Assembly: GCA_034190545.1 (NCBI GenBank)
Contig: JAXIOF010000049.1
Location: 1-38,781, forward strand
Reading direction: 5' to 3'
DNA: 38,781 bases
Source of the DNA: Candidatus Afararchaeum irisae
GTDB lineage: Archaea; Halobacteriota; Halobacteria; Halobacteriales; Afararchaeaceae
The notes under the pieces were generated by a model that was given only the letters and a program-made list of their open reading frames with translations, was not told the origin of the DNA and searched no databases. Numbering within the stretch: position 1 is the stretch's first letter; each line of letters begins with the position of its first letter. Both the position numbers and the translations under genes were made by a program. Shown one piece after another: positions 6,107 to 38,781 of this stretch.

Positions 6107-6278
6107 CATCCTCCCCGCCGTAAACGGCGAGACTTCCCGTCCCGCAGTTGGGATATTTGCCGGTCTACGATACGACCTGTTCTCTCGTGCGAAACGTCCC
6201 GCTCTCGCGGTCGAACAGGTGTACCGATGGCTGTGCCACGCAGCCGTTACTCCTATCCTCACCATGAGGACTCGGAGT
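6103..6278 (-). ncRNA. Candidate omega (reRNA) guide RNA of TnpB copy 2
   Basis: In characterised IS200/IS605 systems the guide RNA is processed from the tnpB 3' end plus the element right end, with the guide in the adjacent host DNA. Here the tnpB tail, a conserved GGATATTTGCCGG-type stretch and the terminal hairpin are arranged in that way and shared with copy 3. The guide would then be read from the 3' end of the TauE gene. Expression and exact ends are inferred. Confidence 0.4.
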
Positions 6279-7460
6279 TATCTCTGAACTTCGTTCAGAG
6301 GTTAACGAAGCTTTGCTTCGTGATATCTTCTGCCGCATATTCTCCGCCCCATTACAATCCGCGTTGGCTACCAATTCACACGACGAGCAGACGTACAGTC
6401 CCCGTTCGACACGGTTCGACTTCGTGTCGTCACCACATCGTGAACACGTTTTCGAGGTGTCCCACTCGTTCTCCTTCAGCACCTCGACACCGCGAATCTC
6501 GCCTTTGTATTCGAGGTACTGGTAGATGCGGTCGAACGCCCACGAGTGCAGCTTCTTGTTGCCAGTCTTACCCCAGTCAGATTCTCGCACGTCTTCGGGC
6601 CAACTCACTGCGAGCGTGCCGACACCGCGTTCGACACACTCTGTGATGATGGTGTCTGTCAGCGTGTGGTAGAAGTGTGTCTCGCGCTCTGTGAGTTTTC
6701 GACGTGCCCACATCGACTTTTCGGACGGCCCGTTCTCACCCTCAGTGTCGTACTCCGCTCGAGTGAAGTAGTGCTTGTCTTCTTTGAGTGAGTTGCCGGG
6801 GTAGAGAACGTATTCGTCGGGGAAGGCGACCGTGGCGATGTTCTTGATTCCGAGATCGATGCCTGCCACTCCGTTGCCAGCAGAGTCGTTGGTTTCGAGG
6901 CTGACTTTGCAGACGAAGTGCAGTTCCCACTCCTCACCATTCCAGACTGCGCGAACGCTCTGCACCTTGGTTACTTCTGAGAGGTCAACGTCAGGGCGTG
7001 TCTGGTACTCACAGAGGAGGAAGTCCGAGCGGTGGTCTTTCAGGTTCGAGCCTTTCGAGAGGCGGACTTGCTGGTGTTTCGTGTCAAGTTTGAATCCGTC
7101 TTCTTTGAAGGTGACTGTACTTCGTGGTCGGGTGTCGCCGTGTTTGCGGTAGCCGGGCGGGTTCGCCTTGTCGTCCTTGTGTCGCAAGTCGAACCATGAC
7201 TGGAAAGCGTCGGAAAGTTCTTCGATGACTTTCTGACTGGATTGTGCGTTCAAATCTTTCCAGCACTCTCGGTTCTTCATGTACGCTTTGAGCGTTCCTT
7301 CGTCTGGGATTTCGCCTGTTTCGCCCCAGATGCGGTCGGCTGTCCAGCGTGCGACGTTCCAGATTTTTGAGGCGGAGTCTCCGAGCGAATCGAGGCCGTC
7401 GCAGACTTGTCGCTGGTTCTGGATGAAACCAACGTAGGTGCGCGTGACCTCAATCGCCAT
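6165..7460 (-). CDS. tnpB: TnpB RNA-guided nuclease (IS1341-type), copy 2
   Basis: This transposon-encoded nuclease would use an RNA from the element right end to cut DNA and so favour retention of the element. It has 431 residues. The N-terminal wedge/helical part contains KIWNVARW and the RRPRST-like region. RuvC-I is GIDLGIKN, two CxxC pairs (CSRC, CSSC) form the zinc finger, and RuvC-III is ANADCNGAEN. The canonical RuvC-II Glu is not visible (AVSWPEDVRE), but YKGE lies about 45 residues on. Between RuvC-III and the tail there are about 15 residues (SRSKASLTSERSS region) that relatives lack, encoded by a 45-nt double hairpin. The frame is open throughout. Start ATG at 7460. Confidence 0.92.
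   Translation of the reverse strand: MAIEVTRTYVGFIQNQRQVCDGLDSLGDSASKIWNVARWTADRIWGETGEIPDEGTLKAYMKNRECWKDLNAQSSQKVIEELSDAFQSWFDLRHKDDKANPPGYRKHGDTRPRSTVTFKEDGFKLDTKHQQVRLSKGSNLKDHRSDFLLCEYQTRPDVDLSEVTKVQSVRAVWNGEEWELHFVCKVSLETNDSAGNGVAGIDLGIKNIATVAFPDEYVLYPGNSLKEDKHYFTRAEYDTEGENGPSEKSMWARRKLTERETHFYHTLTDTIITECVERGVGTLAVSWPEDVRESDWGKTGNKKLHSWAFDRIYQYLEYKGEIRGVEVLKENEWDTSKTCSRCGDDTKSNRVERGLYVCSSCELVANADCNGAENMRQKISRSKASLTSERSSEITPSPHGEDRSNGCVAQPSVHLFDRESGTFRTREQVVS
6279..6328. repeat. 45-nt double-hairpin insertion inside tnpB copy 2
   Basis: Two triloop palindromes, CTCTGAAC-TTC-GTTCAGAG (6282-6300) and ACGAAGC-TTT-GCTTCGT (6305-6321), are joined by GTTA. Compared with tnpB copy 3 this is an extra 45 nt (15 codons) that keeps the frame. 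TATCT occurs at 6279-6283 and again at 6324-6328, exactly 45 nt apart, like a five-base target duplication. The insertion sits in the variable linker after RuvC-III. Confidence 0.75.
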
Positions 7461-7565: not shown

Positions 7566-7852
7566 CGCCAGACTGCGTCTGGCGGGCAACCAGAATCCTG
7601 TGGATTCTGGGTGACGTCCCCAGAACGCGAAGCGTTCTGGTGTGCCGAACGAGACGCTTCGCGTCTCGTCAACGTCCCCAGAAATCTTCGATTTCTGGTA
7701 TGCGAACAAATCGCGCAGCGATTTGTCAACGTCCCCAGAACCCGAAGCGTTCTGATATGCGGACGAGAGCTTCGCTCTCGTCAACGTTCGAAAGACGCTT
7801 CGCGTATTTCGAGCCCACAAGACCGAAGGTCTTGTGAACGCCCTGAAGGGCG
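7566..7852. repeat. Array A: eleven tandem triloop hairpins in the left end of IS copy 2
   Basis: Hairpins start at 7566, 7590, 7620, 7649, 7678, 7706, 7736, 7762, 7789, 7816 and 7839. Most have a 9-bp stem and a three-base loop, mainly TTC or GAA, closed by C-G. Spacers of 6-9 nt alternate between a CAACGTCC type and a TATGCGA type, giving a unit of about 57 nt that contains two different hairpins. Two members carry single stem mismatches (7736-7754 and 7789-7811). The array splits the CCCGCCCT/AGGGCGGG left-end hairpin of the transposon. There is no coding potential. Confidence 0.9.
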
Positions 7853-32232: not shown

Positions 32233-32383
32233 TCAAACTCTACGAGTTTGATGGCTCGTGAATCTAAGATTCACGAACGCTCGTTGAGGGTGTCGTCAGA
32301 AGCGGAGCTTCTGACTGCTCGCAAATCTACGATTTGCGATGTCTCTGAGGGAACCTCAGAGGCTCGTGAACTTTCGTTCACGA
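32233..32383. repeat. Array D: six triloop hairpins after tnpB copy 4
   Basis: Hairpins lie at 32233-32251, 32256-32276, 32296-32314, 32319-32339, 32343-32361 and 32364-32383, with stems of 8-9 bp. Loops are TAC, TAA, GGA, TAC, GAA and, in the last, TTTC. Spacers are short (2-4 nt) except 19 nt between the second and third. The last two hairpins form the 3' end of the tnpB reading frame: the stop codon at 32356-32358 lies in a stem. Confidence 0.88.
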
Positions 32384-33624
32384 TGGGGCTTGTCGGTGGA
32401 CTCCGCCTCTGACTCCATAACAGAGTACGAGACAAATCCTCGGTTCGGCTTCACAGTCCCCGACTTCAGGGCGAGTTGACTGTCGCCCGTCCGCCGTGAG
32501 TCATGTAGCCCACGACGGACAAACCGCCATCCCACGTTCTTCGCCGCGTTATAATCTGCATTCGCCGTCGCACCACACTTCTCACACTCGAAGAAATCGC
32601 GCTCCGTTCGGTTGCCATCGCTCGTATGACCGCACTCACAACACCGCTTCGACGTATTCTCAGGGTCAACGTACACGACTGTGATACCAAGTTCCTCAGC
32701 CTTGTACTCGACGTACTTGACGAGTTGGGCGTGCGCCCACTGGTGGAACTTACGCTTGCTCGGCATCGAGTCGCGGATGTGCGTCAAGTCCTCGAACGCG
32801 ATGTGCGTGCAGTCGTAGGCGACTGCCTCCGCGAGCAACCGATTCGACACCCTGTGCAGGTAGTCACGGTTGTACCGTTCTTCGCGGTTATCCCGCTGGA
32901 CGAGTGTGCGATGCGCGGACTCAGTGCCGGTTTCTTGGAGGCCGCCGCGAACGCGCTCGAACTCGCGGTGTTCGTGCAAGAGTTCTTGGCCTGACTCGAA
33001 GTGAGCGGTGCTGGTGACGGCGAGGTTTTCGATGCCGAGGTCAACCCCGAGAACTGTCCTGTCCTCGGCGGGTGACTCGTCGGCATCGGGCTTCGGCTTA
33101 CGGAAGCCGAGGTGCAGAAAGTAGTCACCATCACGCGCTGTCAGCGTCGATTCCGTCACTTCCCACTCGTCGCTGTCGAGGTACTGGTACTGGTAGCCGT
33201 CTTCGTCGTCGGGCAGTACCAATTCGCACCGCACTCGACTGTCGGTGGTGGCGAGGGAGACGGTGTTGTCATCGAACAGGGTCATCGTGTTGGCGTCGTA
33301 CTTCACCGTGGGAGCGGTGAACTCGGGTTTCGAGTAGTTACGACCCTGCTGTTTGCGTTCATCGACGCCTTTCAGGGCTTGTGCGGCTTGGAAGCACGCG
33401 AGGATGGCGTGTTGACTCCCGAGACGAGTTTGGTCACGAACATCGTCGTATGCGAGTGACTGGAGTTTCCGCTTACGGGTTTCGTAGTGTTCCCAGCCGA
33501 TGTCCGTGGCAATGTTCGCACCTGTGCGCCACTCGTCAATCGTGTCTTCGAGCAGGTCGGCCTGCTCAGGGGACACGGAGAGGCGCGTTATTGCGGTGCG
33601 TCTCAGGTAGTCGTCGTCCGACAC
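32356..33624 (-). CDS. tnpB: TnpB RNA-guided nuclease, second subtype (copy 4)
   Basis: An RNA-guided nuclease of 422 residues from an IS200/IS605-type element. RuvC-I is GVDLGIENLAV, RuvC-II is AFEDLTHIRD with the canonical Glu, the zinc finger is CCECG and CEKCG, and RuvC-III is NADYNAAKN, so all catalytic residues are present. The C-terminal GGLHDSRR-like region and SGTVKPN are typical of this haloarchaeal subtype. The last eight or so residues (RERKFTSL) are encoded by a triloop hairpin and are probably not original. Codons such as CGC and ATC are favoured, unlike the neighbouring chromosomal genes. Confidence 0.93.
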   Translation of the reverse strand: MSDDDYLRRTAITRLSVSPEQADLLEDTIDEWRTGANIATDIGWEHYETRKRKLQSLAYDDVRDQTRLGSQHAILACFQAAQALKGVDERKQQGRNYSKPEFTAPTVKYDANTMTLFDDNTVSLATTDSRVRCELVLPDDEDGYQYQYLDSDEWEVTESTLTARDGDYFLHLGFRKPKPDADESPAEDRTVLGVDLGIENLAVTSTAHFESGQELLHEHREFERVRGGLQETGTESAHRTLVQRDNREERYNRDYLHRVSNRLLAEAVAYDCTHIAFEDLTHIRDSMPSKRKFHQWAHAQLVKYVEYKAEELGITVVYVDPENTSKRCCECGHTSDGNRTERDFFECEKCGATANADYNAAKNVGWRFVRRGLHDSRRTGDSQLALKSGTVKPNRGFVSYSVMESEAESTDKPHRERKFTSL

Positions 33625-34009
33625 ACGTTCAAAGAATGCCTATGGTTACTTAATAGTTGGTGTCTGACTGATGTGTGGGTGACGCGCTCCTCCCCGCCCT
33701 ACTGCGTATGCGAATCTTCGATTCGCTTGTGCTGGAAAACTCTTAGAGTTTTCTGCATCACAGAAATTGAAGATTTCTGAACGTCCTCAGAACGCTTCGC
33801 GTTCTGATATGCGAACGAGAGCTTCGCTCTCGTTAACGCCACTCGCTTCGCTGCGTTGCGTTGTGTTGAAAATCGGAGATTTTCATACGTATGCGAATCT
33901 CTGATTCGCAACACTTCTTGAGGACGTCCCGAGATCTCCGATCTCGTGGGCTCAGAAATCTGAGATTTCTGAACGGGGACTCCGCGCTACCACACAGTTG
34001 AAGCTTCGT
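33625..34009. other. Upstream region of tnpB copy 4 (contains array B)
   Basis: This 385-base stretch between tnpB and npdG holds the probable tnpB promoter (ACTATTAAGTAACC on the minus strand, about 20-30 nt before the ATG), a GC-rich left-end sequence and array B. It has no gene. Confidence 0.6.
33710..33972. repeat. Array B: about ten triloop hairpins in the left end of IS copy 4
   Basis: Clear hairpins are at 33710-33726, 33735-33753, 33761-33779 (one G-T pair), 33787-33807, 33814-33834, 33867-33885, 33892-33910, 33930-33946 and 33952-33972. A weaker GC-rich imperfect one lies at about 33840-33865. Loops are three bases (TTC, TTA, GAA, TTC, TTC, GGA, TCT, TCC, TGA). The pair at 33782-33838, including its ACGTCC and ATATGCG spacers, is nearly the same as 7730-7786 in array A. 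Confidence 0.88.
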
Positions 34010-34651
34010 CTAAACGAACTTTATTCCGAGATCCTTGAGACCGTTCTTTATGCCTATGTTTATAAGAAGGGGTGTTACACTCTCTATCTGTGCGGCGTTT
34101 CCGAGGCTTCCGGCGTCGAGTGCGTTGACGCCTTCCACCGACTCGACGACCTCGACTGCGGTCTGTTTCGCGTCTGCCTCCCCGAAGACGGCTATGTCGA
34201 CTCCGAGTTCGGCGTCAGGGTCGGCGAGACGTCCCGCGGCTATGTTGTGGAAAGCCCCCGCGACGCCGAACGAGTCGGGGAGACCGTCACGTACGAGCTG
34301 TGCCGCACTTCCCTCGTCGGGCTGGTCGTACTTGAAGCCGTCGTCGTCACGTTTCATGCTCGTGACGGGTGATATGACTGTAGCGTCTCCGTCTGCGACC
34401 TCGGCGACCTGATCCACGACGTCTGGGAGGGAGCCGAAAGGAACCGCGAGGACGACGACCTCGGCTTTAGCTGCGTCGGCGTTCGATCCGCTCTCGACTT
34501 CGACGCCCGTCCTCTCGGAGTACTCGTCGGCAGCTTCAGATGCTCTGTCCTCGTCCCTGCTTCCGACTACGACTTCGTGCCCAGCCTGAGCGAGACGTAC
34601 CGAGAGACCGCCTCCGAAGTCACCCGTGCCTCCTATTATTCCTATTCTCAT
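34010..34651 (-). CDS. npdG: NADPH-dependent F420 reductase
   Basis: A cytoplasmic oxidoreductase of 213 residues that transfers hydride between NADPH and the deazaflavin coenzyme F420. The N-terminal Rossmann motif GIIGGTGDFGGGLSVRLA is followed by VVVGSRDEDRA, whose Ser-Arg favours NADP. VVLAVPFGSL, then SPVTSMKRDDDGF and GAFHNIAAGRL match family regions near the F420 site, and the C-terminus LLINIGIKNGLKDLGIKF is typical. I chose the ATG at 34651; the longer frame would need an upstream start in the tRNA promoter region and has no homologous look. It is divergent from tRNA-Glu. Confidence 0.93.
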   Translation of the reverse strand: MRIGIIGGTGDFGGGLSVRLAQAGHEVVVGSRDEDRASEAADEYSERTGVEVESGSNADAAKAEVVVLAVPFGSLPDVVDQVAEVADGDATVISPVTSMKRDDDGFKYDQPDEGSAAQLVRDGLPDSFGVAGAFHNIAAGRLADPDAELGVDIAVFGEADAKQTAVEVVESVEGVNALDAGSLGNAAQIESVTPLLINIGIKNGLKDLGIKFV

Positions 34652-34727
34652 ACTTACTTGGTATGACGCCGTGGGAGTCGTTATAGATTGCGTTATACAG
34701 ACGCAAGGCGGAGCCAAAGCACAATTC

Positions 34728-34760: not shown

Positions 34761-34826
<66 letters not shown>

Positions 34827-34835
<9 letters not shown>

Positions 34836-35011
34836 AATCTTTGATTTGCGAGCCAGCGAAATCTACGATTTCGCGACGGAGCAAATTTCTCTGAAATTTG
34901 CATGGAACAGAATCGTAGATTCTGTGACGGAGCAAAAATTTCTGGTTTTTGCTAACACGCGAGAACTCCGTTCTCGCGGGCTCAGAAATCTGAGATTTCT
35001 GAACGGGGACT
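34827..35011. repeat. Array C: tRNA-Glu 3'-end repeats with seven triloop hairpins
   Basis: GACGGAGCA, the last nine bases of tRNA-Glu, occurs at 34827-34835, 34875-34883 and 34926-34934 (periods of 48 and 51 nt). Between copies lie hairpins at 34833-34849, 34856-34874, 34881-34901, 34907-34925 and 34932-34952 (two G-T pairs), then 34958-34978 and 34982-35002. All have three-base loops. The final 34 nt (34978-35011) are identical to 33948-33981, the outer end of array B. No tnpB is adjacent, so this is a non-coding array abutting a tRNA. Confidence 0.88.
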
Positions 35012-35024
35012 TAGCCTGAAAAAG

Positions 35025-37267: not shown

Positions 37268-37453
37268 TTCAGCGAGAGAATCCCGCCCTTTCCGTGAGGG
37301 ACGAGTGTTCCGACACTTGTTGTCGGAACCGAGGACCGAACAGGGCGGGAGTGAATCGCGTAAGCTCCGGTGAGGGGCCGTCACTGCTTCGCTCGGCTGG
37401 ATATTCAACGTCGACACGAAATCATTAAGTCATTGTACTGTCATAGTCTATGT

Positions 37454-38710
37454 ATGGTGAATCTGGTCACGACACGCACCATTACAGCGGCACTCACCAA
37501 CGACCGTGAGGGTGTCGTGCGTGACCTGGATTTACTCAGTCGTTCCGGCAGCAAAATCTGGAACGTTGCTCGGTGGATCGCTGGCCGCATCTGGGACCAC
37601 ACCGGAGAAATTCCGGATGAGGGACCGCTCAAGTCCTACATGACGAACCAACAGTGCTGGAAAGATTTGAACTCGCAGTCAAGTCAGGCAATCGTCGAAG
37701 AATTGGCTGGCGCTTTCCAGTCGTGGTTCAACAAAGACGACCCCGATGCCAACCCACCGGGCTACCGCAAAGACGGCGATGAACGACCACGTTCAACAAT
37801 CACGTTCAAAGAAGACGGCTTCAAACTCGACACGAACCACCAGCAAGTCCGCCTCTCCAAAGGCAAGAACCTGAAAGACGGGTGGAGCGACTTTGTTCTC
37901 TGCGAATATGACACCGGCTCGGACGTATCCCTCACCAATGTCGAAGACGTCCAACAGGTCCGCATCGTCTGGAACGGCGACCACTGGGAGCTTCACTTCG
38001 TCTGTAAGGTCGCCATCAACGCCGCCGACTCGTTTGGCGAGAAGACGGCTGGTGTTGACCTCGGTATCTGCAATACGGCAGCTGTCTCTGTCGGTGACGA
38101 AACCGTGTTGTATCCGGGCAACACGTTGAAAGAAGACGCACACTACTTCCGGCAGGAAGAGTACGACACGGAAGGTGAGAACGGCCCCAGCAACCATGCT
38201 GAATGGGCACGCCGCAAGAAATCCCGGCGGCAGACCCACTACCTGCACGCTCTCTCGAAAGACCTCGTGAACCAATGTGCAGATCGTGGTGTGGAGACGA
38301 TAGCAGTTGGCCATCCGAAAAACATCCGCGAGGATGAAGACTGGGGCAGGCACGGCAACAAGCGCCTCCATGACTGGGCGTTTGAAACTCTGCTCAGTCA
38401 CATCGAGTACAAGGCTGAAGAACGTGGTATTGAGGTTGAGCGGGTCGATGAGTACGAACTGGCTACGTCGATAACGTGCTGTGAGTGTGGCATGAAAGCG
38501 GATTCAAACCGTGTTGAGCGTGGCTTGTACGTGTGTGAGAACTGCGAGTTGGTCGCTAACAGCGACCTGAATGCGGCTGAGAATATGCGAGCGACGGTAA
38601 CTCCGAATCCAGAGATGGATAGGAGTAACGGCTGTCTGGCCCAGCCATCGGTCCGCCTGTTCGACAAATCAACGGGGAGAGTAGCCCCACAAGAACAGGT
38701 CTGCCCGTAG
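37454..38710 (+). CDS. tnpB: TnpB RNA-guided nuclease (IS1341-type), copy 3
   Basis: An RNA-guided nuclease of 418 residues and the best-preserved relative of copies 1 and 2. The helical N-terminus contains KIWNVARWIAGRIW, the RuvC-I motif is GVDLGICN, zinc-finger pairs are CCECG and CENC, and RuvC-III is NSDLNAAEN. The usual RuvC-II Glu position reads AVGHPKNIRE; a Glu in YKAEERG about 45 residues on could serve instead, as described for some TnpB/Fanzor proteins. The C-terminal tail DRSNGCLAQPSVRLFDKSTG is full length. The ATG at 37454 matches the start of copy 2; an upstream in-frame start at 37370 would run through the left end. Confidence 0.93.
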   Translation: MVNLVTTRTITAALTNDREGVVRDLDLLSRSGSKIWNVARWIAGRIWDHTGEIPDEGPLKSYMTNQQCWKDLNSQSSQAIVEELAGAFQSWFNKDDPDANPPGYRKDGDERPRSTITFKEDGFKLDTNHQQVRLSKGKNLKDGWSDFVLCEYDTGSDVSLTNVEDVQQVRIVWNGDHWELHFVCKVAINAADSFGEKTAGVDLGICNTAAVSVGDETVLYPGNTLKEDAHYFRQEEYDTEGENGPSNHAEWARRKKSRRQTHYLHALSKDLVNQCADRGVETIAVGHPKNIREDEDWGRHGNKRLHDWAFETLLSHIEYKAEERGIEVERVDEYELATSITCCECGMKADSNRVERGLYVCENCELVANSDLNAAENMRATVTPNPEMDRSNGCLAQPSVRLFDKSTGRVAPQEQVCP

Positions 38711-38781
38711 ACCAGCAAATATCCCAACGCTTGCGGTGCGGTTTCGGGAAGCCTCGCCGTTTACGGCGAGGAGGAGGTCAC
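38620..38781 (+). ncRNA. Candidate omega (reRNA) guide RNA of TnpB copy 3
   Basis: The tnpB 3' end and the following right end, including CAGCAAATATCCCAAC and the terminal hairpin, are conserved with copy 2, as expected of the guide-RNA scaffold in IS200/IS605 systems. The guide would lie just beyond the window end. Transcription is inferred. Confidence 0.4.

What the first reader, a model, noticed from the sequence alone, without database searches (positions are those of the whole stretch)
34827..34934. The tRNA-Glu 3' end is repeated three times inside a hairpin array
GACGGAGCA, the end of the tRNA, recurs with periods of 48 and 51 nt, each copy followed by a hairpin that uses its final GCA in the stem and then a second hairpin. 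This looks like repeated insertion of a double-hairpin unit of about 50 nt at the tRNA end with duplication of the target. It is reminiscent of tRNA-targeting integration but at a very small scale. The hairpin abutting the mature 3' end could also affect tRNA 3' processing.
Basis: partly seen in the sequence, partly recalled or inferred. Interest (0 to 1): 0.8.

Follow-up and report, generated by a model that had tools for sequence, protein, structure and literature searches.

The report
tRNA tail copies in hairpin repeats
In salt-loving archaea many tRNA genes are followed by exact copies of their own last 21 letters, packed between hairpins in repeated units that come and go between species, and the window shows a small, rebuilt example behind a tRNA-Glu gene; how the copies arise and whether they do anything is not known.

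Summary
In detail: GACGGAGCA, the end of tRNA-Glu(TTC), occurs at 34827, 34875 and 34926, each copy running into a hairpin that uses its GCA and then a second hairpin. Two layers are mixed here. (1) Tail copies are a general haloarchaeal feature. In four genomes 12/36, 20/44, 21/36 and 19/35 tRNA genes carry one to six downstream copies of their own last 21 nt, most of them exact; upstream and outgroup controls give 0-1. Each copy is the 3' arm of a hairpin whose 5' arm is complementary to it. Unit number differs between congeneric species, including a clean 105-bp presence/absence at tRNA-Glu. The window's 9-nt tails are a reduced version; the second tRNA-Glu has the same modules in another order plus the full unit. 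(2) The three-base-loop hairpins belong to a genome-wide family that mostly flanks tnpB genes: IS605/PATE-like palindromes, not tRNA-specific. I found no description in open literature or Rfam.

The parts
34761..34835 (+). tRNA-Glu(TTC) gene; its last 9 nt (34827-34835) are the first tail
   Evidence: ARAGORN; Rfam
34875..34883 (+). second copy of the tail, GACGGAGCA
   Evidence: identical 53-nt module with this tail at the other tRNA-Glu
34926..34934 (+). third copy of the tail, GACGGAGCA
34833..34849 (+). hairpin 1, stem 7 with 3-nt loop, uses GCA of the tRNA end
34856..34874 (+). hairpin 2, stem 8 with 3-nt loop, abuts the second tail
34881..34901 (+). hairpin 3, stem 9 with 3-nt loop, uses GCA of the second tail
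34907..34925 (+). hairpin 4, stem 8 with 3-nt loop, abuts the third tail
34932..34952 (+). hairpin 5, imperfect (G-T pairs), uses GCA of the third tail
   Evidence: fold
34958..35012 (+). PATE-like double hairpin (34958-34978, 34982-35002) with the end sequence GAACGGGGACT
   Evidence: 34978-35011 identical to a stretch of the array at the 5' side of tnpB
33710..33972 (.). related hairpin array at the 5' side of the tnpB gene 32356-33624 (-), without tRNA tails
32233..32361 (.). related hairpin array at the 3' side of the same tnpB gene
7566..7836 (.). related hairpin array of 8 three-base-loop hairpins at the 5' side of another tnpB gene

Best explanation
The array is a reduced member of a haloarchaeal class of tRNA-tail repeat units. 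A full unit, counted from the tRNA end, is: hairpin X, then hairpin Y made of the complement of the tRNA's T-arm, an apical stem-loop, and a copy of the tRNA's own last 21 nt from T-loop G53 to the discriminator base. SHOWN: the copies are tRNA-specific and mostly exact; their 5' border is fixed at the T-loop; the two arms of Y pair; units occur in tandem and differ in number between congeners. INFERRED: new units arise by an insertion-like event at the 3' end of the tRNA (or of an earlier tail copy) that duplicates the tail, and recombination between tails then multiplies, deletes and reorders them. In this genome small PATE/IS605-like double hairpins have entered the tail repeats, so that only the last 9 nt of the tail remain between hairpins at 34833-35012. 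The hairpins probably act as folded single-stranded DNA in mobility. A role in the transcribed tRNA trailer is possible but unproven.
For: Exact 21-nt own-tail copies behind a third to a half of tRNA genes in four genomes, 0-1 genes in upstream controls and 0-1 of 31 tRNAs in each of two outgroup genomes. Fixed 5' border: identity 97-100% inside the first ten bases of the copy, 28% two bases upstream of it. 82 of 101 units have the T-arm complement at 8/9 or better, 0 of 101 in shuffled and upstream controls, with tRNA-specific outer arms (4.56 vs 3.74, sd 0.09). Apical stem covaries. Clean 105-bp presence/absence between congeners; unit numbers differ at most orthologous tRNAs. Same modules at both tRNA-Glu genes in different order, with the full unit at the second. 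Double hairpins directly at tRNA or tail ends in another family. tnpB-flanking arrays share the hairpin type and 34 identical bases.
Against: No inserting enzyme was identified. In congeners the tRNA-proximal unit is often the shared one, so ordered insertion next to the tRNA is not seen. The window itself has no T-arm complement and no 21-nt copy, so its descent from full units rests on the second tRNA-Glu and on relatives. Copy-number changes alone could come from recombination between tails.
Confidence: 0.5

Rival explanations
1. Functional trailer RNA. The X and Y hairpins with their tail copy are selected parts of the pre-tRNA transcript (3'-end processing, a tRNase Z decoy or substrate, or transcription termination); copy number varies by ordinary recombination between tails.
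For: Same orientation and position behind tRNA genes across the order; compensatory changes in the apical stem; in G003 several units are followed by T-runs; hairpins can terminate transcription in Haloferax (PMC7237163).
Against: Half or more of the tRNA genes have no unit, and orthologous tRNAs of congeners gain or lose them. Apex types and unit numbers change fast.
Confidence: 0.25
2. Ordinary integrase scars: tail copies are attR remnants of viruses, plasmids or islands that integrated into the tRNA genes and were later deleted.
For: Tyrosine recombinases of archaea use tRNA 3' ends and the T-loop region as attachment sites (PMC8371274); a 22-nt tRNA duplication marks a Haloquadratum prophage (PMC3119063).
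Against: Spacing is short, mostly 40-160 nt, with a conserved hairpin complementary to the tail at 82 of 101 units, tandem units of constant period, and a third to a half of the tRNA genes affected. Deletion scars would not look alike.
Confidence: 0.1
3. Pure PATE/IS605 hairpin array: double hairpins landed behind tRNA-Glu, and the 9-nt tail was copied along by slippage or tandem duplication, with no connection to the 21-nt tail units.
For: Hairpins are of the genome-wide tnpB-flanking type; the window has no T-arm complement and no 21-nt copy.
Against: The same 53-nt module interrupts a true 21-nt tail unit at the other tRNA-Glu, and relatives have hairpin plus full unit at tRNA-Glu.
Confidence: 0.12
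4. Assembly artefact of repeats in a metagenome-derived genome.
For: The second tRNA-Glu is split at a contig end (C13/C78), as repeats often cause.
Against: The same architecture is in single-contig and near-complete genomes of other families.
Confidence: 0.03

Closest known systems
PATEs and IS605-type termini of Haloquadratum (PMC3119063)
   Same: Gene-less elements with near-terminal palindromes, down to 52 bp, related to IS605-type termini; here the same sort of hairpins flank tnpB genes and occur alone.
   Different: PATEs are not described as targeting tRNA ends, do not duplicate a target, and carry no tRNA tail. The 21-nt tail units of other haloarchaea have different hairpins.
att duplications of tyrosine-recombinase elements at tRNA genes (PMC8371274)
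   Same: A copy of the tRNA 3' end, starting in the T-loop region, lies downstream of an intact tRNA.
   Different: No integrase or cargo between the copies, spacing mostly 40-160 nt, conserved self-complementary hairpin, tandem units, and many tRNA species per genome.
E. coli tyrT repeats (rtT; from memory, not tested)
   Same: As I recall, repeats downstream of a tRNA gene that each contain a copy of the tRNA's 3' end.
   Different: One locus in one group, as I recall; here many tRNAs across an order, with a tail-complementary hairpin.
CRISPR adaptation and casposon insertion (analogy, from general knowledge)
   Same: Works like it in one respect: unit inserted between duplicated target copies, proximal copies exact, distal copies decayed.
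   Different: No Cas1-like gene was linked, the interior is a hairpin unit rather than a spacer, and unit-level polarity was not found.

Membership tests
Haloarchaeal tRNA-tail repeat unit (class described here) | Downstream copy of the tRNA's own 3' end | tested here: met
   Window: 9-nt tail twice more. Class: 21-nt copies.
Haloarchaeal tRNA-tail repeat unit (class described here) | 21-nt tail starting at the T-loop and preceded by its complement | tested here: not met
   Absent behind tRNA-Glu(TTC) of the window; present behind the other tRNA-Glu. The window is therefore called a derivative, not a full member.
PATE / IS605-type terminus | Near-terminal palindromes shared with a tnpB-bearing element of the same genome | tested here: met
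   34 identical bases with the array beside tnpB; 11 of 19 arrays within 250 nt of tnpB. Met for 34958-35012; weaker for hairpins 1-5 (matches of 13 nt, and 80-81% over about 50 nt).
PATE / IS605-type terminus | No target duplication | tested here: inconclusive
   Tail copies flank the hairpins, but they may come from the tail units rather than from the hairpin insertion.
PATE / IS605-type terminus | Mobilised by a Y1 transposase (TnpA) | not testable with these tools
   Three Y1 genes are present in the genome; no link to the array can be shown by sequence alone.
Integrase att site duplication | Integrase-bearing or larger element between tRNA and tail copy | tested here: not met
   Intervals of about 40-350 nt hold hairpins, no room for a gene of that kind.
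Known Rfam families | Match of the units to a described RNA family | tested here: not met
   Only the tRNAs and an unrelated ribosomal leader matched in six loci with units; in the window only tRNA and two sot0042 elsewhere.
Integron attC / casposon | Dedicated integrase (IntI or Cas1 homologue) linked to the array | not tested
   Considered by analogy only.

The most novel reading that the evidence does not exclude
Haloarchaea host a class of gene-less mini-elements of about 100 nt that insert at the 3' ends of many different tRNA genes, duplicate a fixed 21-nt tail each time and form tandem arrays, using a folded single strand and an unidentified enzyme; the window array is such an array invaded by PATE hairpins.
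Probability: 0.35. Interest if true: 0.85.

Novelty: new variant of a known kind. Interest (0 to 1): 0.72.

Why it matters
tRNA 3' ends are the classic landing place of mobile DNA. A repeat class that copies the tail of many different tRNAs, keeps a folded hairpin under compensatory change and turns over between sister species would be either a new kind of minimal mobile element or a new kind of tRNA trailer. Both are directly testable in genetically tractable haloarchaea. It also warns that tail copies downstream of haloarchaeal tRNAs are not by themselves proof of an integrated virus or plasmid.

Tried and rejected
Literature searches for tail repeats, truncated tRNAs downstream of tRNA genes and rtT found no description; only open-access papers were searched. 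A box C/D or k-turn RNA was considered from the GGGA...GACC motif and dropped on reading the sequence: no 3-nt bulge and no box C. A loose search for the hairpin motif in the genome stretches gave many chance hits inside genes, so the stricter pattern with a T-arm tail was used; its reversed control gave 0 in all 293 genomes. Outside the order the pattern only hit what look like tRNA genes themselves. In one haloarchaeal genome (G097) tail counts were spoiled by a tRNA island and are not used as evidence. One of two viral-contig hits is a tRNA-Glu with a unit (L425), the other an unrelated chance match; no evidence that viruses carry the units as mobile parts.

Full report
1. What is there. 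The window lies in a haloarchaeal genome assembly (G000, 1.90 Mb, 117 contigs; the window is contig 49) whose family has no other member among the relatives drawn. tRNA-Glu(TTC) occupies 34761-34835. Its last nine bases GACGGAGCA recur at 34875 and 34926. Each copy runs into a hairpin that takes up its GCA (34833-34849, 34881-34901, 34932-34952). The first two of these are followed by a second hairpin (34856-34874, 34907-34925), and the third by two more (34958-34978, 34982-35002). The fold is 7 standard deviations better than shuffled sequence.

2. The hairpins by themselves are not special to tRNA ends. In 261 kb of this genome there are 151 perfect hairpins with a 3-nt loop (18 in block-shuffled sequence), 131 of them closed by C-G, and they cluster in 19 arrays. 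The loops come about equally in both orientations. Eleven of the 19 arrays lie within 250 nt of a tnpB gene, on its 5' or 3' side, although only 12% of the sampled bases lie that close. The distal end of the window array (34978-35011) is identical over 34 nt to a stretch of the array at the 5' side of the tnpB gene at 32356-33624. These are most simply termini of IS605-type elements and their gene-less derivatives, like the PATEs of Haloquadratum (PMC3119063).

3. The tail copies are special to tRNA ends. In the same genome 12 of 36 tRNA genes carry a near-perfect copy of their own 3' end 40-160 nt downstream; alignment scores are bimodal, 19.5-25 against 9 or less. The copy starts at the T-loop (GTTCRA) and ends at the discriminator base, 21 nt. 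It is preceded by the complement of the T-arm and an apical stem-loop, often CAGGGA-stem-YGACCG. In three other haloarchaeal genomes 20/44, 21/36 and 19/35 tRNA genes have such copies, up to six per gene and most of them exact; equal stretches upstream have copies at 0-1 gene per genome. Of 29 tRNA-Glu flanks from relatives, 15 have a downstream tail copy (score 16 or more). Two genomes of the same phylum outside the order gave one hit, apparently the end of a second tRNA, and none, among 31 tRNAs each. A strict pattern for one hairpin type occurs in 199 of 293 genomes of the order with no hit for the reversed pattern; a few of these hits are chance or lie inside tRNA genes. In named haloarchaea 73 of 76 such sites lie within 600 nt downstream of a tRNA gene and 56 carry its tail at 20/21 or better.

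4. Anatomy and constraint. Over copies from four genomes the identity to the tRNA is 97-100% in the first ten positions, falls to 88% at the last, and drops to 28% two bases upstream of the copy, so the 5' border is fixed. The arm in front pairs with the copy: 82 of 101 units match the T-arm complement at 8/9 or better, none of 101 shuffled or upstream stretches do. Its outer part follows the individual tRNA: score 4.56 against 3.74 (sd 0.09) with other tRNAs' tails. In 25 apical stems 96% of cells are paired with 26 double changes, a covariation score that none of 500 shuffles and no slid alignment reaches. Folding of a single strand, RNA or DNA, is therefore under constraint or is being copied.

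5. Turnover. Two congeners (G011, G038) differ in unit number at most orthologous tRNAs. At tRNA-Glu(TTC) one has a 105-bp unit, bordered by the tail on both sides, that the other lacks. Near-identical tandem copies exist: three of 108 nt in G214 and four starts 111 nt apart in G119. First tails are exact in 26 of 29 multi-unit loci, last ones in 14 of 29 (p = 0.0014). However, the tRNA-proximal unit is often the one shared between congeners, so a simple rule of insertion next to the tRNA is not supported.

6. How the window fits. The second tRNA-Glu of the genome, split between contigs 13 and 78, has the full unit: T-arm complement, apex, and the tail GTTCAAATCCCTGAC. That tail is interrupted by the same 53-nt module that starts at 34833 here, and continues with GACGGAGCA. 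Behind it come the same modules as in the window, in the order M1-M3-M2 instead of M1-M2-M3. In another family tRNA-Glu is followed by a hairpin that uses the same GCA, the linker GAGCA, and then the full tail unit. A PATE-like double hairpin sits directly at the end of a tRNA-Lys (L045), and one follows a tail copy of a tRNA-Ser but not the tRNA itself (L044). The window array is best read as tail repeats in which small double hairpins have replaced most of the usual unit, leaving the last nine bases of the tail, reshuffled by recombination.

7. Mechanism. Insertion with tail duplication followed by recombination between tails is my best guess (0.5). The enzyme is unknown. A selected trailer RNA with recombination-driven copy number is the main rival (0.25). 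Ordinary integrase scars do not explain the short spacing and conserved hairpins. Assembly error is unlikely because single-contig and near-complete genomes show the same architecture.

8. Novelty. Rfam has no family for the units. The open literature searched has none either, though subscription papers are missing from that library. The E. coli tyrT/rtT repeats, which I know only from memory, are the nearest described arrangement. I call it a new variant of a known kind, with a sizeable chance that it is a new kind of minimal element.

Noticed in passing
window 32356-33624 (-), 37370-38710 (+), zinc ribbons also at 101-307 and 6336-6536 (-): Four tnpB (IS1341-type) genes in one 38.8-kb window and 34 matches in the 1.9-Mb genome, against three Y1 transposase matches; two sot0042 RNA matches lie at tnpB 3' ends (6112-6283, 38595-38772).
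   Followed up: partly
window 7566-7836, 32233-32361, 33710-33972: Arrays of hairpins with exactly 3-nt loops closed by C-G on both sides of tnpB genes; stems differ in sequence but stay perfect. Many loops read GNA on one strand.
   Followed up: partly
L228 (G119 C1 2656400-2657800): Four pattern hits spaced exactly 111 nt apart, probably four near-identical tRNA-tail units in tandem.
   Followed up: no
L189 and L196 (G097 C1 around 2240700-2244700): Dense island of some thirty divergent tRNA genes in about 4 kb of a haloarchaeal chromosome, perhaps a provirus or plasmid island.
   Followed up: no
L002-L030 and L131-L150: The first hairpin after the tRNA in many haloarchaea has a recurring loop of the form GCGAACAA..CCGTGAGC with a variable stem; a second conserved hairpin type in the unit.
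   Followed up: no
window 34010-34717 (-): Reading frame whose product looks like an F420-dependent NADP reductase-type protein just upstream of the tRNA-Glu gene (read by eye, not searched).
   Followed up: no
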